Shown here: piece by piece, positions 855-20,126 of the stretch | Numbering within the stretch: the first letter of the stretch is position 1 | Layout: every line of letters begins with the position of its first letter | Source: a virus | Virus record (IMG/VR): IMGVR_UViG_3300007540_000167 | Coordinates: 1 to 20,371 of that record | Strand: one strand, 5' to 3' | Length of the DNA: 20,371 nt | Position numbers and translations under genes: made by a program | Notes under the pieces: generated by a model | Told to the model about the DNA's origin: nothing | Database searches by the model: none | Seen by the model: only the letters and a program-made list of their open reading frames with translations

Positions 855-2048
855 TTAACCGCCTTGAAGCCATTTTTGTTTTCTTTCGTTTAAAGATCCT
901 GCCGCGCCAGTTGTTGGCTCGTAAAAAGTGTCTGGCGGAATATTTTCTCCCATAGATCTACGTCTGGCAATATCAGTATAAAATCTAAGCTCGGCCAGTG
1001 CGGCTCTAAAATCTTCTGGGCTTTGAGTTGTAAGCAACCTAGCCCCTGCTTCTTCAGCTTTCTTACCTTCTAACTCTGTAATTTGGCCTCCGCCTTTTAG
1101 GCTTTCAAATGCATTTAAGAACACGCCACCTTTAATTTTGTCTAAAACACCTCTGGCTACTTGCGCCTGTGGAAGCAATGCCCCAAGCCCTAAAGTGTCA
1201 AGTGCGCCGGTTGCTATGCCTTTTACACCTACAATCTGATCTAAGCCTTCAAGACTTAACAAGTTATCAATATCTGCTATCATCGCCGTGGCTTTTGAAG
1301 CTCCTGACATGTTGGACTCTTGCTTCTCAACATTGCCAAGAAGAATGTTTGCAGTGGGGGCGTCTATAAGTTGGCCAGTGAGGGCGCTCATAATTGCTTC
1401 ACGCTGTTGCGTAGGACTGCCTGCCGCGCCTGCGCCGCCCATACCCATGCCACCCATAAGATTACCCATAAGCTGACGCCTAGCTGCTACCGCTTGGCGC
1501 TTACGCTCCATGTCGGCACGCTCTCTAAAGCCTGTTAGTGTTCCAGAAAATGCTGTGCCCTCTTTCCCTTGCAGCGCCATGCCTGCATCCTTAATTGCGG
1601 CAAATGCAAGCATTGTTCTTTGATTTTTGCTCAAATTTTCAAACGGGTCTTGTGATATAGATTGATCAAGCAAGCTCATCATGGCGCTTGGCGCGGTTAC
1701 GGTTGTTGCTTTTTCTGGCATTGTCGGAGGAGTTGCCCGATCTGCAAGTCTTATATTTCCCCCTATGCCAAGTTCCGTTAAGGCATCTGTCGCGATGCCT
1801 TCTGAGCCAACGACTGGTTCGCTTGGCATTGGGCTAGTTAAAATTCTGTCTGCCTGATTAACTACCTTTCCCTCTCCCATAGGCATCGACGGGACACTCA
1901 AGTCCATAGCACCTCTTGCCAACTGCTCTGCCGGAGATCCTGTAGCCATGCTCATCTTCTGCAAGTCTGCCGCCGTAGCTACGTCGCCTGCCATAGCGTC
2001 TATGAGACCAAATCTGTCTATGTCTTCTTGTGTTAGTATATATGCCAT
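855..2048 (-). CDS. Putative internal virion protein (397 aa)
   Basis: The product has 397 residues, no signal peptide and no clear membrane segment. It has a Met/Gly-rich low-complexity stretch at about 193-210 and a conserved-looking C-terminal part with KIKGGVFLNAFESLKGGGQI, TELEGKKAEEAGARL and then SPEDFRAALAEL. In my recollection the 'LKGGGQITE-EGKKA' block is shared by internal or ejection proteins of many marine podoviruses, where it lies among the last structural genes as here. The start is the ATG at 2048-2046, with an AGGAAG ribosome binding site and 9 bases after the previous stop. It probably leaves the capsid with DNA or forms part of the ejection apparatus. That role is inferred from position and the motif. 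Confidence 0.65.
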   Translation of the reverse strand: MAYILTQEDIDRFGLIDAMAGDVATAADLQKMSMATGSPAEQLARGAMDLSVPSMPMGEGKVVNQADRILTSPMPSEPVVGSEGIATDALTELGIGGNIRLADRATPPTMPEKATTVTAPSAMMSLLDQSISQDPFENLSKNQRTMLAFAAIKDAGMALQGKEGTAFSGTLTGFRERADMERKRQAVAARRQLMGNLMGGMGMGGAGAAGSPTQQREAIMSALTGQLIDAPTANILLGNVEKQESNMSGASKATAMIADIDNLLSLEGLDQIVGVKGIATGALDTLGLGALLPQAQVARGVLDKIKGGVFLNAFESLKGGGQITELEGKKAEEAGARLLTTQSPEDFRAALAELRFYTDIARRRSMGENIPPDTFYEPTTGAAGSLNERKQKWLQGG

Positions 2049-2057
2049 TTTAACTTC

Positions 2058-3707
2058 CTACGTTCTTAAAAATGGTAAGTTCATTCCATAAGGCCCAAGC
2101 CCCATACCAATGCTACCTATCGCACCCAACGCAGGCCCGAGCCCACCAGTACGCTGTGTGGTCGTGCCAAGTCCGGCAGGTATACCTGATGCCGCGCCGA
2201 GCAATGCGTTCAAGCCAGTAAGTGGGAAATCTTGCTCTCTGCCAAACTGACCGTATGCAGCGTCTAACTGAGCTTGTTGTAACGCTTGTCCAACTCCCCC
2301 TGCGCCCATCTGAGCTCCGAGGCCGGCTAATTGCTGTTGTAGTTGTCCGCCTGCGGTTCCTAACAAGCCCTGCGCTCCTGCTTGCTGCAATCCGGCAGCA
2401 TCGAATTGGCCGCCAAATGTCGCCGCTTGAGCTGCCTGATCTCTTGCTGCCTGCGCTTGCGCCGCAGCATTTTGAGCCTCGGCAGCCGTAAGCCCTGCTT
2501 GTTGCGTTAAGCCTGCTTGCTGCGCTGCCCGTGCAAAATCTTGTTCGGAAGCCGTAAGGCCGGCAGTTTGCGCAAGACCTGCTTGCGCTTGGGCTCTAGC
2601 CGCTTCTTGCGCCGCCGCAGCCATTGCCGCTTGCTGCTCAAATGCAGCTTGTTGCATTGTGCGTTGATTAAGGGCATCCATAGACTCCAAGCCTGCTTGC
2701 TGCGTAAGCTGCGCTTGCGCCTGCGCCCTAGTATTAAAAGCCGCTTGGTTAGAAAGCGTCGCTTGCTGCTCAAGTTGTGCCTGTTGCCTTGCAAACTCGT
2801 TAGCCGCCTGCATATTGCCTGCTCTGGCTGCTTGATCTCTTGCCGCCGCAGCTTCTCTGGCTTGTTGGCCAAGTGTTTCTGCTTGCAGCTCTTGCTGTGC
2901 CGCCAAGCTGCGTGCTTGCTGCACATTGCCAATGTCAAAACGACCACTAGCTAATGCTTCACTAAACGCTCTTTCACGCTGCGTTGCTGAAAGTTCTCCG
3001 GCTTGTCTTACAGCTTCTCCTGCCAGTATACCCTCTTGAACAGCCTGACGAGATCCACCAAACGCGCCGGCTGCTTCTGCCTCGGCAGCAAGTCTATTAG
3101 ATGCTAATTGCCTTTGCCTTTCAATGTCTTCTTGGCCTGCTTCGATAACTGCTTGAGTGTACGGAGAGAGGTATGGGTCAATATCTGTAGTAGCCAACTT
3201 ATCTACCGCAATCTCGCTTGGGGCTTCGGCTGCCGACACTGCGCCTACTGCTCGCATACGCTCGGCTTCTTTTAGCTGTGCGGCTCTCGCTCGCTCAACT
3301 GGATCAATTTGAGCGCCTTCATATGTGACCATATCGCCAATCGTTGTAGCCGAAGGTAGCATTGTTCTTTCAATAGTGGCTCCGCCGAAAGCTTGAGTAG
3401 GCTGAACTGTGGCTCCGCCATATGTTGTGACCGGAGCTGCGGTTGCCGCCTGCATCGGCGTCATCTGGAAGTCTGCCAAACGCCCGAAAGTTTCTCCTGC
3501 CTGCTCAAACATAGGCGCACCCATACTAAGGGCTCCGTAGCCTTCCATTGCTTGTTGTTGTAATGGCGTTAGTCCTGCAACAAGCTCGCCTTCATATGGG
3601 GTAAACTCTCTACCGGCTATATCTTTAGCGTATGGAAGGACAGTTTCTTCGAGAAACTCTCTTTGAAACTCGGGTAATTTTGTTTCGCTTGTGGTTTTAG
3701 ATCCCAT
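2058..3707 (-). CDS. Ala/Gln-rich internal virion protein (549 aa)
   Basis: The 549-residue product has three regions. The N-terminus (1-150) resembles phage proteins beginning with '...PYAKDIAGREFTPYEG...LTPLQQQA'. Residues about 170-210 contain DPYLSPYTQAVIEAG and the AGAFGGSR motif, which I recall as a hallmark of a marine-phage internal protein family. From about 240 to 460 there is a long Ala/Gln-rich helical region with repeated QQAGL and QAQ units, likely an extended helix or coiled coil. Start and upstream stop share one base (TAATG), with GGAG upstream, so translation is probably coupled to the GNAT-like gene. It is probably a DNA-ejection or capsid-internal protein. Long ORFs in other frames across 2222-2954 are by-products of the low-complexity codons. 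Confidence 0.7.
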   Translation of the reverse strand: MGSKTTSETKLPEFQREFLEETVLPYAKDIAGREFTPYEGELVAGLTPLQQQAMEGYGALSMGAPMFEQAGETFGRLADFQMTPMQAATAAPVTTYGGATVQPTQAFGGATIERTMLPSATTIGDMVTYEGAQIDPVERARAAQLKEAERMRAVGAVSAAEAPSEIAVDKLATTDIDPYLSPYTQAVIEAGQEDIERQRQLASNRLAAEAEAAGAFGGSRQAVQEGILAGEAVRQAGELSATQRERAFSEALASGRFDIGNVQQARSLAAQQELQAETLGQQAREAAAARDQAARAGNMQAANEFARQQAQLEQQATLSNQAAFNTRAQAQAQLTQQAGLESMDALNQRTMQQAAFEQQAAMAAAAQEAARAQAQAGLAQTAGLTASEQDFARAAQQAGLTQQAGLTAAEAQNAAAQAQAARDQAAQAATFGGQFDAAGLQQAGAQGLLGTAGGQLQQQLAGLGAQMGAGGVGQALQQAQLDAAYGQFGREQDFPLTGLNALLGAASGIPAGLGTTTQRTGGLGPALGAIGSIGMGLGPYGMNLPFLRT

Positions 3708-13563: not shown

Positions 13564-13806
13564 TTATTTTCTTTTTATTTCAATAGCCCCGTTATCTACC
13601 ATTGCACGCAGCAATTGTCGTACTGATTGAACGCCGCGTAATTTCATATAAATAGCCTCACGGCTATCACTATCATTGGTTTCAGTCGCTTTAAACTCAA
13701 ACCAACAATCCTGCTCGATCTCGTCTAAAAATCTTCTGAGATCTGTATCTTTAAGTAGACGGTCTGCCTCCCTGCCGTCATCTATAATTTGCTGTTTAGT
13801 CTTCAC
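13564..13806 (-). CDS. Small conserved phage protein between portal and scaffold (80 aa)
   Basis: The start is the GTG at 13806-13804. It overlaps the portal C-terminus by 11 bases and has a perfect AAGGAGG at 13813-13819 at normal spacing. The 80-aa product is charged and all-helical, with 'DTDLRRFLDEIEQDCWFEFK', 'DSREAIYMKLRGVQSV' and 'LLRAMVDNGAIEIKRK'. I recall similar small helical proteins next to portal genes in many marine phages, without assigned function. It may act in portal or procapsid assembly; this is inferred from position only. Confidence 0.72.
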   Translation of the reverse strand: MKTKQQIIDDGREADRLLKDTDLRRFLDEIEQDCWFEFKATETNDSDSREAIYMKLRGVQSVRQLLRAMVDNGAIEIKRK

Positions 13807-15919
13807 GCGCAGCCTCCTTTATTACGTCAGCCTGCGCTTTCATAACTTCTCGATTGATTGCTAGATCGGATCGGATCTGTTCGACGTTGAGCTGCGTGCC
13901 ATACTTGGCTTTCATTTCTTCAGCCTTCACAAATAACTCCGCCTCTAGCTCGTCACGCTTACGGTCATCCTCAAGCCTAAACTTCTCGCGTTGCATTTGT
14001 AGCTCGGCAGCTTTCTTCTGAATATCCGCTTGTATTTGCTGAATTTGCACTTGGATAAGCTGCTCGTTAATGTCTGGCTTTTTATCTTGCGGCGGTGGCT
14101 GAAACTGAGCCGGATCGCCCCAGAACTGTGAGGTATCTTTAAACCCTGCTATTTCTGTCATAGATTTCAATGTGTTAGACAGTTTCTGCATATCAGTAAG
14201 TGGGTTAATTGGACCCATCGTCTGCATCGCGTCTTTCTGCATCTCGGCAATCTGACGTAGCATTAGCATACGCTCGGTGTCAGAACCGCGTCCGAGGGCT
14301 ACGTTAACTGTGACATCCATGTCGCTATTCCACACACGCGGATCTATAGGCACGAAATTATTATTCAGCCTAATCATGCGCTCGCGGTCTTGGTGGGTGG
14401 TTACTAGATGAAGCACAAGCTCATACATGCGCTTTACGCCCGTCTCGGCAAAGACACGCGCAATCATCTCGATATGTTGTTGTGCGGCGCTCACGGTGGC
14501 TGCTACGGCTGTAGCTGTGCTAGATTGTAGTGCGCCGGCATCTAAGCCTGCGGATGCCTTGGATATGCCAGTGCGAGCCTCTTTAACCTCGTCCATATAC
14601 TGTAATACTGGGAAAGCGGCTTGGCCGACAAACGGCATGGCCATAGGCTGCACTTGACCGGCTGCACGCTGCCTAATTATTGCGCCGACCTCGGTAGACA
14701 TGACGTCATCAATGTTCACCATACCCTCGACAACCGCGACCCGTGGGTGGATCGACATGCTGAGGCTGTCAAGTGTGTTACGCATAATGGACGACTTGAT
14801 TCGCTGCACGTCCATCACCGTGTCGGCTACAGACATGCCAAAGAAGTCGTGTGGCTCTGGATCTGGACATAGCGTCGCAAACGGCGCCATGTCGCATGGC
14901 TCGTTCATTAAAATCTTGTTACCGTCGCCTGCGGTGCAAACTTTACGCAGCTCGGCAATGCCGTCGCCGTCGTAGTCAACTTTGATATAGTTTTCGACGT
15001 ATAGCACCTTTTTCATCGCAGGGTCGTGGCGCTCGTTCATCTCATTTGTCAGCGCCTTGTTCCGCGTGTAACGCTCTACGTTGGTGTCCATGTCGTCGTA
15101 TGACGCGCCGAGCTCGGATACCTCGTCGTAATCGTATCCCATCGCCACAAGCTCTGACACGGTTACGATGCGCCGGTGGGCAACGTAATCGGCTTGCTCA
15201 ACCGACTTGCTTTCGCGTGAAATTAGGAACTCCTCCGGAGGCACGGCCTCTAGCTTAACGCGGCCATCTGGATGCGTGTATGTCGCCCTAACGGCGTGCA
15301 TCATTGGCACTGGCATATCCTCGCCGGTGAGCGGATCTTGCATTGGCTCTCCCATAGGCTCAGACGCTACGATCTCCACCTCAACCGCAGGATCTGACAT
15401 CAGCGCCGCGAGGGACGCGTCATCGAGGCCAGAATAGGAAACGGTTTCGTATTTCGTCTGGTCGTCCCAGTACACCTTCAGTATGCCGACCTTACGCACA
15501 AGCGCGTCCATAAAGGCAGAGTGCATTTCTAGGAAGCCGTTGTTGTCTCGATTTATGATGTAATTAGCGTAATCGGTAGCCTGCTTGGCTGCGGCGACGT
15601 CTTCTGGGCCTTGCGGCACGTATTCCACGGTCTGGTCGCTGCCGTGGAAAATACGCATGAGCGACGGCATAATCGCCTGCACGGTGTCGCGCACGTCCAT
15701 TGATACAACTTGGCTGCGCCCGTCTTCCTCATTGCCAAACGGCTCGCCTCGGTAATACTGGGTGGCTGTGGCTCTCTGCGGCGAGATCCAGTTATCGATG
15801 AAGTCGATTGCGTCGTCGATCTCTTTGCCGACAATTCCTTGCAACTCCTCGTCTGGCATGACGTCAGGGTTCATCTCCTGCTCAAGCTCTTCTGCAAGTT
15901 TACTTACTTCGTAGTCCAT
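13796..15919 (-). CDS. Portal protein (P22/SU10-like, 707 aa)
   Basis: The 707-residue length is usual for large podovirus portals. Family-like blocks include WISPQRATATQYYRGEPFGN (44-63), DVRDTVQAIMPSLMRIFHG (75-93), PDPEPHDFFGMSVADTVMD (352-370), SAGLDAGALQSSTATAVAA (456-474) and TVNVALGRGSDTERM (537-551). Residues about 615-705 form a long Gln/Lys/Glu-rich helix that may be the barrel or tail of the ring. The dodecameric portal is the DNA channel and binds terminase and adaptor. ATG at 15919-15917 has a strong GAGGTGAT ribosome binding site. A CtrA-like box lies 34-49 bases upstream. G+C is visibly higher than in the neighbouring 703-aa gene (35/60 in the bases at 15601-15660). Confidence 0.88.
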   Translation of the reverse strand: MDYEVSKLAEELEQEMNPDVMPDEELQGIVGKEIDDAIDFIDNWISPQRATATQYYRGEPFGNEEDGRSQVVSMDVRDTVQAIMPSLMRIFHGSDQTVEYVPQGPEDVAAAKQATDYANYIINRDNNGFLEMHSAFMDALVRKVGILKVYWDDQTKYETVSYSGLDDASLAALMSDPAVEVEIVASEPMGEPMQDPLTGEDMPVPMMHAVRATYTHPDGRVKLEAVPPEEFLISRESKSVEQADYVAHRRIVTVSELVAMGYDYDEVSELGASYDDMDTNVERYTRNKALTNEMNERHDPAMKKVLYVENYIKVDYDGDGIAELRKVCTAGDGNKILMNEPCDMAPFATLCPDPEPHDFFGMSVADTVMDVQRIKSSIMRNTLDSLSMSIHPRVAVVEGMVNIDDVMSTEVGAIIRQRAAGQVQPMAMPFVGQAAFPVLQYMDEVKEARTGISKASAGLDAGALQSSTATAVAATVSAAQQHIEMIARVFAETGVKRMYELVLHLVTTHQDRERMIRLNNNFVPIDPRVWNSDMDVTVNVALGRGSDTERMLMLRQIAEMQKDAMQTMGPINPLTDMQKLSNTLKSMTEIAGFKDTSQFWGDPAQFQPPPQDKKPDINEQLIQVQIQQIQADIQKKAAELQMQREKFRLEDDRKRDELEAELFVKAEEMKAKYGTQLNVEQIRSDLAINREVMKAQADVIKEAARED

Positions 15920-15952
15920 GTATCACCTCTTGAGTAGTGGCTTGCATTTTTG

Positions 15953-15968
15953 TTAAAAATTTGTTAAC
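15953..15968. promoter_or_regulatory. CtrA-like box TTAA-N7-TTAAC (site 1)
   Basis: TTAA at 15953-15956, seven bases, then TTAAC at 15964-15968. The reverse strand also reads TTAA-N7-TTAAC. This equals the full consensus of the alphaproteobacterial regulator CtrA. It lies 22 bases before the 52-aa plus-strand gene, with a TATAAA at 15974-15979 and AGGAGA at 15980-15985, and 34 bases before the portal start on the other strand. Close packing of box, TATAAA and ribosome site leaves open whether CtrA would activate or repress. Confidence 0.6.
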
Positions 15969-15990
15969 TGTTTTATAAAAGGAGACCGAT

Positions 15991-16149
15991 ATGTCAAAAA
16001 TAGAAACCGACCCAGATATAATACGAGAATTAATTTTCTTAAAGGCAAAAGATTTAGGCTTAGAAGAAGAAAGCCTAATTGAGCTTGATGAGTTACTTTG
16101 CAAATTAATTAACATAGAAAATCCAGAACCTTTTATTTACCCTGTTTAA
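15991..16149 (+). CDS. Small plus-strand protein (52 aa), unknown function
   Basis: The ATG at 15991 gives MSKIETDPDIIRELIFLKAK and a further 32 residues, ending FIYPV before TAA at 16147-16149. A perfect-looking AGGAGA lies 5 bases upstream. It is one of only two short genes here on the plus strand. It meets the 703-aa gene tail to tail with a 17-base overlap. The protein is acidic (many Glu/Asp) and helical with Leu/Ile spacing (ELIFLKAKDLGLEEESLIEL), so it may pair with a partner. The CtrA-like box and own ribosome site suggest independent control, in the manner of a moron gene. I do not recognise a family. Confidence 0.7.
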   Translation: MSKIETDPDIIRELIFLKAKDLGLEEESLIELDELLCKLINIENPEPFIYPV

Positions 16150-18244
16150 GTAAGTCTCTTAAAATACCGTCTATTATTTCGTTTGTCATAAGTTGAGCAG
16201 GAACTTTAGTTTTTATAGCATGAGTTTTATGAGCTTCATTAAATGGCTGCCCTGACTTAGTTACACCGCCCTCCATAGCATCGTATACATCTTTAAACAG
16301 TTTGCTTTGATGAACGAGAGGTAGTGACCCTAAATAATCTCCTGTTATTTGAGTGTTATATGTAGAGTGTGGAAATTTAGGAGCAGGAACATTACCTTTT
16401 GGATTATTTGGAAGTACAGGCATTTTTGTGTCTATGCGAGCAGCTCCTCCTCCAAACATTCCTGCGCCCAACTCTCTTTGAGATGGATCTGTAACCGCAT
16501 ATCTAATTTGACCCGAGCTTGGAAAGCCTTCTTTTTGCATAGGTGAAGCCTCTGCAATCCTAATAAAAGATTTTCTAACCTCTGGGCTTGCGTTGTTTAA
16601 ATATGATCTTAAATTAGGAGATCTGATACCTACAAAGTTTTTATCTACAGCCAACATAAGCTCATTAAAATCTTTTGCGCCTTTTTTGGTTATTTTAGCC
16701 CCTTTCACCATTTCCGCCATAGCGTCGCCTGTAAAAGTAGCAAAATCATTTGCATTAGGCGCCATACTGCCAGTTACACCTACAATATCTGCACCCTCAA
16801 AATTTTTCTCTGCTTTATCTGCGGTTTTTGACAGTCTGGTTATAATATTACTGTTTGAAGCCCATATAGACTTATCTGCTTGAGCCGCAGGGCCGCGCAT
16901 AAAATCAATACCCCCTTCTGTATAAACTGGGGTATCAAATTTTACATCATCAATAGCATCTAATATTAAACCTCTTGAAGTTCTATCGCCATAAAAGGGA
17001 ATAACAACTTTACCCCTCATATCCTCCCACGACATAGGCTTCCTTGGCTTATTCTCTCCTGTATCTGTAAGGCTTACATCAGTATCAGTTAAACGTTTTC
17101 TTAATTTTGTGTTCTGATACCCTAAAGGGTCGAGATCTTCTTTGTTTAGTTTTTGAGCGTTTTCGTCTACTGCAAACCCTAATATACCTGCGCCTTTAGA
17201 TTTGTTTGCAGCCACAATGCTAGGATCATATGCATCAGCAAAATCAGCAAACCTACTTCTTAAAACCGCAGGATCTCCTGCTGTTCTGTCAGTAAGCATA
17301 ACGTGGCTTACACTGCCCCTATCTTCAATAGCATTAATATAAGGTATATTCGTATATTTTTTATCAGTAAGGTCTTTTCTAAAAGCCGCCATACCTGCGT
17401 CAAAATCTTCGGGCTTGCTAAAACCGTTATTATCTAGCCAATTTTGCATATAATCCCGAGCCTCAATCTCAGTCATAATACTGCCGTCTTCTTTTAACAA
17501 AGGCTTATCTGTTCTTGCCAACAGAGGAAGCGTTTGTCCCCCTTCTGACTTTAAATATTCCATTTGGGTGTCAATATCTTTTTGATTTAACTCGCCAAAT
17601 CTTACATTATACCTAGACAGAGCTGCGTCTTTAGTCCCCACATGTGGGCCAAGTCTATCAAATCTTGGACCCCCTGCGTAGGGTATTAAACTATCGCCCT
17701 TCATTTGATTATTGTTCATGTAATGAAAAACTGGAGAAGTGAACATGCCTTGCACTTCGGGATTATTTTTTATTTTAGGATCTACTTTAGTAGTTTTTGC
17801 TGTAGCTTTTCTTGTGGGACTCAAGGCGCCGCCAAGGCTTGCAAATCCTGCGGCATTTAATGCTTCACCCATAGCATCAGAGCTAGGTACTTGCCCACCG
17901 TAAGACGCTGAAGGTAAAGTAACCGCCCTTGCTATTGGGTCCAACAAGTTGCCAAGAAAATTTTTAGGCTCAAATTGCGTGTTTTTAATTGCGTCAGTGC
18001 CAGTTGACCCTACAGGCTTTGAGGCAAGACCAAATATAGTAGACTCTCTATTCCTATCAGACAAATCTTTTCGAGCATTATTGCCGAATCCAAATAAATT
18101 TTTAAACGGGCTGTTTTGCTCTCGATACGTTCTTTGCATAGTACGTATTTGATCATCTGTATATTCAGATGAAGAATTAGGGTTTGTAACCATAGATATA
18201 AAGTCACGAAACTGCCGTGGAGACATATCTAGATAGCTTGCCAT
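16133..18244 (-). CDS. Phage polyvalent-type protein with ADP-ribosyltransferase-like domain (703 aa)
   Basis: The 703-residue product resembles, from memory, modules of large phage polyvalent proteins. Region 1 (about 165-350) looks like a phage ADP-ribosyltransferase-like domain. It has FHYMN (173-177, where family members have YHGT), RFDRLGPHVGTKDAALSRYN (194-213), YINAIEDRGSVSHV (302-315) and LRSRFADFADAYDPSIVAA (328-346). Region 2 (about 403-530) has VVIPFYGDRTSRG (413-425), a TPVYTEGGIDFMRG run (438-451) and WAS (461-463), like a known polyvalent-associated domain. Region 3 (570-640) has EGFPSSGQIRYAV and PHSTYNTQITGDYLG. It could be injected to modify host proteins. The changed YHGT motif leaves activity uncertain. 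It is A+T-rich (18/60 G+C at 16561-16620) compared with the portal. Confidence 0.65.
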   Translation of the reverse strand: MASYLDMSPRQFRDFISMVTNPNSSSEYTDDQIRTMQRTYREQNSPFKNLFGFGNNARKDLSDRNRESTIFGLASKPVGSTGTDAIKNTQFEPKNFLGNLLDPIARAVTLPSASYGGQVPSSDAMGEALNAAGFASLGGALSPTRKATAKTTKVDPKIKNNPEVQGMFTSPVFHYMNNNQMKGDSLIPYAGGPRFDRLGPHVGTKDAALSRYNVRFGELNQKDIDTQMEYLKSEGGQTLPLLARTDKPLLKEDGSIMTEIEARDYMQNWLDNNGFSKPEDFDAGMAAFRKDLTDKKYTNIPYINAIEDRGSVSHVMLTDRTAGDPAVLRSRFADFADAYDPSIVAANKSKGAGILGFAVDENAQKLNKEDLDPLGYQNTKLRKRLTDTDVSLTDTGENKPRKPMSWEDMRGKVVIPFYGDRTSRGLILDAIDDVKFDTPVYTEGGIDFMRGPAAQADKSIWASNSNIITRLSKTADKAEKNFEGADIVGVTGSMAPNANDFATFTGDAMAEMVKGAKITKKGAKDFNELMLAVDKNFVGIRSPNLRSYLNNASPEVRKSFIRIAEASPMQKEGFPSSGQIRYAVTDPSQRELGAGMFGGGAARIDTKMPVLPNNPKGNVPAPKFPHSTYNTQITGDYLGSLPLVHQSKLFKDVYDAMEGGVTKSGQPFNEAHKTHAIKTKVPAQLMTNEIIDGILRDLLKQGK

Positions 18245-18245
18245 A

Positions 18246-18545
18246 TCACCACTTCACCTTGTCTGCCCAGTACGCCGCCGACATTTTGCCTTTGGCAATG
18301 TTTTTACCGTGTCGCGCCTTAAATGATGCGCGTTTCTTCTTCATCTTGTCGCTCTCGCCTGCCTTCGGCTTGCCTGCGGTTTTGGCGCCCTGTTGGCCAA
18401 ACCTGATCGTCTTTACCTTATCTCCGGATTTCGCAACCACGACGTGCGATTTCTTCGGGTGGCTCGGCGTGCGTTTAGGCTTATTAAAACCCGAGACGCC
18501 GGCGCGTGCTAGGCGTGGATCTTTTTTACTTTTTCTTTCCGCCAC
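18246..18545 (-). CDS. Lys/Arg-rich conserved small protein (99 aa)
   Basis: The product is 99 aa and very basic. Residues 23-37 (PKRTPSHPKKSHVVV), 44-53 (VKTIRFGQQG) and 70-99 (KKRASFKARHGKN, then MSAAYWADKVKW) match a family of small proteins I recall in marine phages and large algal viruses (I believe DUF5872, not checked). The start is a GTG at 18545-18543, overlapping the upstream gene by 20 bases. No ATG is available nearby and the ribosome binding site is weak, so coupling to the upstream gene is likely. A DNA-binding or virion DNA-condensing role is plausible from the charge only. The next gene starts after one base. Confidence 0.72.
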   Translation of the reverse strand: MAERKSKKDPRLARAGVSGFNKPKRTPSHPKKSHVVVAKSGDKVKTIRFGQQGAKTAGKPKAGESDKMKKKRASFKARHGKNIAKGKMSAAYWADKVKW

Positions 18546-18717
18546 TTTTCTTCGCCTTTTTCGCAGTCTTTGCCGCCGCCTTAAATGATTTTGCCGTCGG
18601 TGCGCCCTTCGAGCCTACTTTACGCATTTTCTCTGGTGTTTTACCTGCCGCCTTCTGGCGTTTGATTCTTTCACGTTTAGCGTGGATGTTGGTGTATAAG
18701 CCCGTTTTCTTAGCCAT
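18526..18717 (-). CDS. Small Lys-rich conserved phage protein (63 aa)
   Basis: The 63-aa product, MAKKTGLYTNIHAKRERIKR followed by 'EKMRKVGSKGAPTAKSFKAA', ends in a Lys/Ala tail. I recall 'GLYANIHAKRKRI...EKMRKPGSKGAPTA' proteins as common small genes next to structural modules in marine podoviruses, with no known role. The start shares one base with the previous stop (TAATG), and the end overlaps the next gene. Its high basic charge suggests nucleic-acid contact, possibly inside the capsid. It is the second of three coupled basic genes. Confidence 0.75.
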   Translation of the reverse strand: MAKKTGLYTNIHAKRERIKRQKAAGKTPEKMRKVGSKGAPTAKSFKAAAKTAKKAKKSGGKKK

Positions 18718-19451: not shown

Positions 19452-20126
19452 ATGGCGATACAATTAAGAAAATGCGCGTGCAGAAATTGCTGCAATTTTT
19501 TTACTTTAAGAAATAGTAATTATTGCTGCACATATTGCAGCCGTCTCGCATCTCGTGAAGCTTGGGACAAAAGAAACCCAAACTATAGAAAGTCTAAAAT
19601 CTACAAAGATTTAATTAATAAAAGAAAACGGGAACGATACAAAAACGACAAAGAATATAAACAAAAAATATTAAACACCCAAAAAGAGCGCACAAAAGAA
19701 TTACGTAAAGACGATAATTTTGTTAAAAAACGAAGAGCTATAAACAACAAGTATAATAGGTCTGAAAAAGGTAAAGAGCGTGCTAAAAAATACATTAAGG
19801 AAAGATCTGAAAAAGATTTAAACTTTAAAATACTAACAAGATTAAGATCTAGACTTTATCACGCAGTTCATAGCCAAAAAACAATTAAAGAAGAAAGCGC
19901 CATCAAAATTTTAGGGTGCTCTACTCAAGAACTAATACCTTACTTAGAGAGTAAATTTTGCAAAGGTATGACGCTAGATAACTACGGCGATTGGCACATT
20001 GACCACATTAAGCCGTGCGCGTCATTCGATCTAACAGATCCAGAGCAACAACGCGACTGCTTTCACTACACAAATCTTCAACCTCTTTGGGCTCAAGACA
20101 ATCAAATTAAATCAGACAAGTACTAA
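19452..20126 (+). CDS. HNH homing-type endonuclease (224 aa)
   Basis: The product has 224 aa. N-terminal CxxC pairs (Cys10/Cys13 and Cys26/Cys29, with Cys8, Cys14, Cys25 nearby) form a likely zinc ribbon. Residues about 40-125 are a Lys/Arg-rich helical linker for DNA. The C-terminus carries GDWHIDHIKPCASFDL (179-194), with His182, Asp184 and His185 of the HNH core, then HYTNLQPLWAQDNQIKSDKY (205-224) with Asn208 and Asn217. This is the standard free-standing phage HNH nuclease arrangement. It is on the plus strand, converges on the terminase gene with a 4-base overlap, is A+T-rich, and follows a structured leader. AAGGAG precedes ATG at normal spacing. Homing or a packaging-related nick are both possible; homing is more likely from the family. 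Confidence 0.85.
   Translation: MAIQLRKCACRNCCNFFTLRNSNYCCTYCSRLASREAWDKRNPNYRKSKIYKDLINKRKRERYKNDKEYKQKILNTQKERTKELRKDDNFVKKRRAINNKYNRSEKGKERAKKYIKERSEKDLNFKILTRLRSRLYHAVHSQKTIKEESAIKILGCSTQELIPYLESKFCKGMTLDNYGDWHIDHIKPCASFDLTDPEQQRDCFHYTNLQPLWAQDNQIKSDKY

What the first reader, a model, noticed from the sequence alone, without database searches (positions are those of the whole stretch)
16133..18244. Virion-module protein with altered ADP-ribosyltransferase-like motif
The 703-aa protein carries the family's later blocks (GPHVGTKDAALSR, INAIEDRG, LRSRFADFADAYDP), but the YHGT-type start motif is FHYMN. It also carries a 'GDRT...G' polyvalent-associated domain. Its position between small basic genes and portal, and its low G+C relative to the portal, suggest an acquired, possibly injected effector.
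Basis: partly seen in the sequence, partly recalled or inferred. Interest (0 to 1): 0.62.

Follow-up and report, generated by a model that had tools for sequence, protein, structure and literature searches.

The report
Swappable ADP-ribosyltransferase module beside phage portal
A marine phage gene next to the portal carries an enzyme-like domain of the ADP-ribosyltransferase fold, from a previously unnamed subfamily, in a slot where closely related phages carry other such domains or none, so it is probably a swappable weapon delivered into bacteria at infection.

Summary
The protein has three parts: a variable N-terminal region, an ART-like module (aa ~160-345) and a conserved C-terminal domain (aa ~367-703). 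AlphaFold2 of the ART module (pTM 0.76) matches ART-superfamily structures: 14 viral models at E<=1e-3, the named ones mostly ART-PolyVal. Nearly all PDB matches kept on a second structural alignment are ARTs. 'FHYMN' is not a decayed YHGT: about 80 distinct relatives share their own set (H174, GxH201xG, R211, E259, E307, S313, R320; all but one fully invariant), with no acidic residue at the usual strand-5 position. Pfam and PHROGs do not recognise it, and I found it almost only in uncultivated viral contigs. The key find is the slot. Phages with 96-99% identical C domains carry the window-type ART, other ART-like modules (about six kinds), or nothing; about 15-16 changes are needed on the C-domain tree. 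The gene lies between terminase and portal, and relatives are fused to peptidoglycan hydrolases, which fits virion delivery (inferred). The C domain looks YTH/EVE-like by fold only. Low G+C is shared by orthologues and is not evidence of recent acquisition. Catalysis and injection are untested.

The parts
16133..18244 (-). whole ORF, 703 aa: variable N-terminal part + ART module + conserved C-terminal domain
17768..18244 (-). N-terminal region (aa 1-159), glycine/alanine-rich stretch near aa 125-140; varies between relatives
17210..17767 (-). ART-fold module (aa 160-345), the exchangeable cartridge
   Evidence: AlphaFold2 pLDDT 78.9, pTM 0.76; ART matches; alignment A3
17714..17728 (-). FHYMN, predicted strand 1 with invariant H174 (73/73)
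17633..17653 (-). LGPHVGT (aa 198-204), predicted strand 2 with invariant H201 (76/76)
17306..17326 (-). EDRGSVS (aa 307-313), loop and start of predicted strand 5; E307 and S313 invariant (80/80)
16136..17137 (-). conserved C-terminal domain (aa 370-703), predicted YTH/EVE-like fold with a helical insertion
   Evidence: AlphaFold2 pLDDT 84.7, pTM 0.80
16979..16990 (-). GDRT (aa 419-422), conserved in the C domain
16853..16867 (-). IWASN (aa 460-464), W-A-S nearly invariant in the C domain
15900..16115 (-). 71-aa ORF between the ART gene and the portal, kept in near relatives
13796..15919 (-). portal protein (SU10-type)
18246..18545 (-). 99-aa basic protein, phrog_7595, conserved neighbour
18526..18717 (-). 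63-aa basic protein, phrog_16028, conserved neighbour

Best explanation
This is a modular phage effector protein. Its middle module is a member of an unnamed subfamily of the ADP-ribosyltransferase superfamily. Its C-terminal domain is a conserved carrier that probably holds the module with the virion or binds nucleic acid. The most likely course is: the protein is made late with the head genes (inferred from position), packaged near the portal, and ejected into the bacterium with the DNA (inferred). There the ART module uses NAD+ to modify a host macromolecule, or consumes or rearranges NAD+/ADP-ribose, so as to favour infection (inferred). The ART module sits in a slot that is exchanged for other ART-like modules or left empty (shown by sequence), as expected if host targets or defences change quickly (inferred). 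The conserved residue set (H174, H201, R211, E307, S313) is taken as the active-site set, with H201 about where H-Y-E/D ARTs have Tyr and no acidic residue at the usual strand-5 position. That register is read from the alignment and predicted strands, not from a superposition.
For: Fold: the ART module models with pTM 0.76. BFVD gives 14 hits at E<=1e-3, and several named ones are ART-PolyVal, e.g. A0A8S5PYJ8 3.4e-4 and Salmonella phage Mutine 5e-4. Of the 45 PDB entries kept with Z>=2, nearly all bear names of ART-superfamily proteins: RES toxins, ParT, MbcT, NatT, tankyrase, cholix, Arr. Conservation: H174 73/73, H201 76/76, R211 76/76, E307 and S313 80/80, R320 78/78 in 82 distinct sequences. 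Slot: HG[GT]/YRG ART-like modules or nothing replace it. Pairs with the same C domain differ in cartridge: L107/L110 C 97% and portal 97%; L025/L107 C 99%; L089/L094 C 96% with none against window type; L076/L077 C 99%. The C-domain tree needs 16 label changes against 19.5 shuffled. Position: where genes are held, terminase - this gene - portal. C domain and ART also occur as adjacent separate genes in L157, L160, L170 and L183. Delivery: ART fused to a transglycosylase in L027, C domain fused to CHAP in L044. Literature: phage ARTs near terminase/portal are argued to be head-packaged (PMC9503650, PMC5512222).
Against: No Pfam, PHROG or PDB sequence match to any ART for the window protein; PDB Foldseek E only 0.1-0.2 and Z at most 6.5, in the range of a merely common arrangement. 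The residue set lacks the acidic strand-5 residue of known macromolecule-modifying ARTs, so catalysis may be absent or different. No virion proteomics was found for this or a close relative. Many relatives lack the module, so it is dispensable.
Confidence: 0.6

Rival explanations
1. Non-catalytic ART fold: the module keeps the fold and a ligand pocket but does not transfer ADP-ribose. It would bind or sequester NAD+/ADP-ribose-type molecules or a protein partner.
For: No acidic residue at the usual strand-5 position; Tyr of the H-Y-[ED] set replaced, apparently by His, throughout the family.
Against: Strict conservation of two His, two Glu, Arg, Asn and Ser over sequences about 30% identical suggests chemistry; the H-H-h clade of catalytic ARTs also lacks the acidic residue (PMC9503650). 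Replacement by modules with canonical HGT starts suggests equivalent enzymatic roles.
Confidence: 0.25
2. An ART that acts inside the infected cell late in infection (host take-over or exclusion of other phages), not packaged.
For: No direct evidence of packaging; some phage ARTs (T4 ModA/ModB) act from within the cell (PMC9503650).
Against: Position among head genes; fusions to peptidoglycan hydrolases.
Confidence: 0.2
3. An RNA/DNA- or small-molecule-directed ART (KptA/DarT-like action), with the C domain as nucleic-acid reader.
For: H-H pattern resembles the H-H-h description; C-domain model resembles YTH, then EVE, folds.
Against: Nearest structural matches include RES/ParT and PARP types as well; the YTH resemblance is fold-only (hhalign P 0.24).
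Confidence: 0.2
4. A head-assembly or portal-vertex structural protein in which the ART module is a decoration without enzymatic role.
For: The C domain is the constant part, next to the portal.
Against: In L007, about 98% identical over its 384 aa, the C domain is missing and a different separate ORF follows, so the C domain is not strictly required; only 4 of 50,697 phage records encode a recognisable C domain.
Confidence: 0.15

Closest known systems
ART-PolyVal / Tox-ART-HYD2 domains of phage polyvalent proteins (Pfam PF18760; Iyer et al. 2017, PMC5512222)
   Same: ART fold (BFVD hits so named); phage gene near portal/terminase; multi-domain protein; one relative matches PF18760 weakly in the expected register (L051, E 0.026)
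   Different: Below the Pfam cut-off; described set is H-Y-D, here H-(H)-S with a separate invariant Glu; 2-3 recognisable modules rather than a giant protein
RES/ParT/MbcT toxins
   Same: Among the best solved-structure matches (ParT Z 6.5, RES 5.9)
   Different: Chromosomal toxin-antitoxin proteins; no sequence similarity; active-site equivalence not tested
MuF polymorphic toxins of temperate phages (PMC5576092)
   Same: Constant head-associated part with an exchangeable effector
   Different: No MuF domain was detected; the slot is internal, not C-terminal; modules seen are ART-like only; no immunity gene was looked for
T4 Alt
   Same: Precedent for a head-packaged, injected phage ART (PMC5512222)
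   Different: Different ART family and architecture
Cyanophage A4 pre-ejectosome chain (PDB 9k3a_B, residues 1418-1600)
   Same: ART model aligns with Z 6.3 to a protein of a podophage ejection complex
   Different: Whether that region is described as an ART was not checked; no paper held

Membership tests
ART superfamily | ART fold | tested here: met
   Predicted structure only; nearly all VIA rows are ARTs, BFVD E down to 4.5e-6
ART superfamily | NAD+-dependent activity | not testable with these tools
   needs biochemistry
ART-PolyVal (PF18760) | score over Pfam gathering cut-off | tested here: not met
   no match for the window protein; best relative 15.7 bits against 31.2
Tox-ART-HYD2 / ART-PolyVal | active-site set His (strand 1), Tyr (strand 2), Asp (strand 5), after PMC5512222 | tested here: inconclusive
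   His 73/73; strand 2 has invariant His201 and strand 5 has Ser313, no Asp/Glu; register is one residue uncertain without superposition
H-H-h clade of ARTs | His, His, hydrophobic active-site profile (PMC9503650) | tested here: inconclusive
   two invariant His; the third position reads Ser or a neighbouring hydrophobic residue depending on register
Polyvalent proteins | two or more effector-type domains in one phage protein encoded with head genes | tested here: inconclusive
   one ART-like domain plus one domain of unknown role; relatives add InPase, SLT or CHAP
YTH / EVE (PUA-like) domain | fold of the C domain | tested here: inconclusive
   top 40 VIA rows are YTH, best Z 7.2, rmsd 4.1, 148 of 157 aligned; EVE rows next at 3.3-3.5; such Z is common by the tool's own note
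YTH domain | sequence profile match | tested here: inconclusive
   no Pfam hit in 20 members; hhalign P 0.24, though it aligns IWASN with IWCST
MuF polymorphic toxin | MuF domain | tested here: inconclusive
   no Pfam or PHROG MuF match; absence of a profile hit does not exclude a remote one

The most novel reading that the evidence does not exclude
A podophage-type 'polymorphic ART' system: one virion slot beside the portal that is reloaded with different ART families. The window's type is a new catalytic class (His-His-Ser with a displaced Glu), coupled to a phage YTH/EVE-like domain that would direct the enzyme to modified nucleic acid.
Probability: 0.15. Interest if true: 0.78.

Novelty: new variant of a known kind. 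Interest (0 to 1): 0.52.

Why it matters
Injected phage ARTs are known, but here near-identical phages differ mainly in which ART sits in one defined slot. That gives natural isogenic-like comparisons to find what each ART targets and which host defence drives the exchange. It also adds a family of the ART fold that Pfam and PHROGs miss, with a residue set that tests how far ART catalysis can depart from H-Y-E.

Tried and rejected
Pfam, PHROGs and PDB sequence searches with the window protein: nothing. A scan of 84,980 prokaryote genomes with the ART pattern: no match; with the C domain: no relative; both rest on exact short patterns, so they can miss divergent copies. Isolate phages with two ART relatives: one weak hit (Virus Rctr197k, E 8e-3) and none; plasmids: none. 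YTH family in the window: none, and the control did not ring. hhalign of the ART profile against other cartridges: weak, above column shuffles in 5 of 6 cases but short, and part of the signal comes from shared linker. Low G+C as a sign of acquisition: rejected, since most orthologues show the same offset. A degenerate, decaying motif: rejected, since the set is invariant in the family. No coordinates were available, so active-site distances could not be measured.

Full report
Observation. It is followed by a 71-aa ORF and an SU10-type portal, and preceded by two small basic ORFs. The window is a whole 20,371-base virus record, probably a fragment of a genome.

Architecture from relatives. Relatives in viral contigs divide the protein in three: N-terminal aa 1 to about 150, a middle module about 160-345, and a C-terminal domain about 367-703. 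L010 has the N and C parts without the middle module; L012 has a different YHGG-type module there. In other loci the C domain and the ART are separate neighbouring genes (L157, L160, L170, L183). In L007, about 98% identical over 384 aa, the ORF ends at the linker and is followed by a different 413-aa ORF.

Is it an ART? Sequence libraries are silent or nearly so. The AlphaFold2 model on 32 sequences has pLDDT 78.9 and pTM 0.76. Foldseek in BFVD gives 14 hits at E<=1e-3, the named ones mostly 'ART-PolyVal'. In the PDB, Foldseek is weak (RES toxin E 0.1-0.2), but in the VIA second look nearly every retained entry bears the name of an ART-superfamily protein. Z is moderate (at most 6.5), so the case rests on consistency across libraries, not on one score. 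The other modules in the same slot also look like ARTs (PF18760 at E 0.007-0.24 for several, below cut-off; the rest by their HGT-type start motif only).

Motif. In 82 distinct sequences H174 (73/73), G199, H201, G203 and R211 (76/76), E259 (77/78), Y302, N304, E307 and S313 (80/80) and R320 (78/78) are kept. Some loci were found with patterns covering LGPHVGT or [YF]T..IPY.N, so the invariance of those stretches is partly by selection; H174, R211, E307, S313 and R320 are not in the patterns. The residue after the strand-1 His is Y, F, T or W in most, not G: FHYMN is a normal family version. Reading strand 2 and strand 5 from DSSP, H201 falls about where Tyr stands in H-Y-[EDQ] ARTs and S313 about where Asp/Glu stands; this is an inference with one residue of uncertainty.

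The slot. Among 43 clusters of complete C-domain proteins, 11 carry the window-type ART, 8 HG[GT]-type modules, 1 a YRG type, 19 no module and 4 something else (types by simple pattern, so approximate). Pairs with 96-99% identical C domains differ in cartridge. The C-domain tree needs 16 changes of label against 19.5 for shuffled labels. One row, L113, is cut at its 5' end and its label is not safe, and two rows are long-branched, so 'about 15' is the fair statement. Direction (gain or loss) is not known.

Context and delivery. Where flanking genes are held, terminase lies upstream and portal, scaffold and capsid downstream. One ART relative is fused to a lytic transglycosylase (L027) and one C-domain protein to a CHAP domain (L044), both usual in proteins that enter through the envelope. 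Published surveys place phage ARTs near head genes and argue for packaging (PMC9503650, PMC5512222). Packaging here is inferred.

C domain. The model (pLDDT 84.7, pTM 0.80) most resembles YTH domains (Z 7.2; 40 top rows), followed by two EVE domains. Sequence comparison does not confirm it. The tool's note says Z of 7-8 is common for models without a clear match, so I treat this as a lead. The domain is rare in isolates: 4 of 50,697 records.

G+C. The gene is at 0.395, the portal at 0.529; all three parts of the gene are alike (0.39-0.41). Orthologues show the same offset in most phages. This argues against recent acquisition of the ART module as the cause.

Verdict. The ART-like core is real and belongs to an unnamed subfamily. 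The most informative feature is the exchangeable slot. Known kind (phage ARTs in virion-module proteins), new variant.

Noticed in passing
L007 6156-7397: In a near relative of the window the C domain is missing from the ART protein and a separate 413-aa ORF (phrog_3170, unknown function) follows.
   Followed up: partly
window 19452-20126 (+): 224-aa ORF on the opposite strand to most others, HNH-like ending by eye, directly beside the terminase-related ORF at the window end; also in L002 850-1521 but not seen in all relatives; possibly a homing endonuclease.
   Followed up: no
window 855-2048 and 2058-3707 (-): PHROG matches to 'released from the phage upon host infection' and, weakly, 'DNA ejection protein', so candidate ejected proteins occur elsewhere in the window.
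   Followed up: no
L020 2708-4399: Window-type ART preceded in the same protein by another region matching phrog_2579 (E 1e-26) that looks like a second ART-type domain by eye.
   Followed up: partly
L016 4870-7566 (MW202675.1): C domain fused to an inorganic pyrophosphatase domain (Pfam InPase E 2e-47) in a protein annotated 'type I restriction enzyme'; the annotation looks wrong.
   Followed up: partly
L027 4506-6407: Window-type ART fused to a lytic transglycosylase (SLT, E 4e-21).
   Followed up: partly
L050 622-3072: Window-type ART in one protein with a DUF6884 domain (E 2e-9).
   Followed up: no
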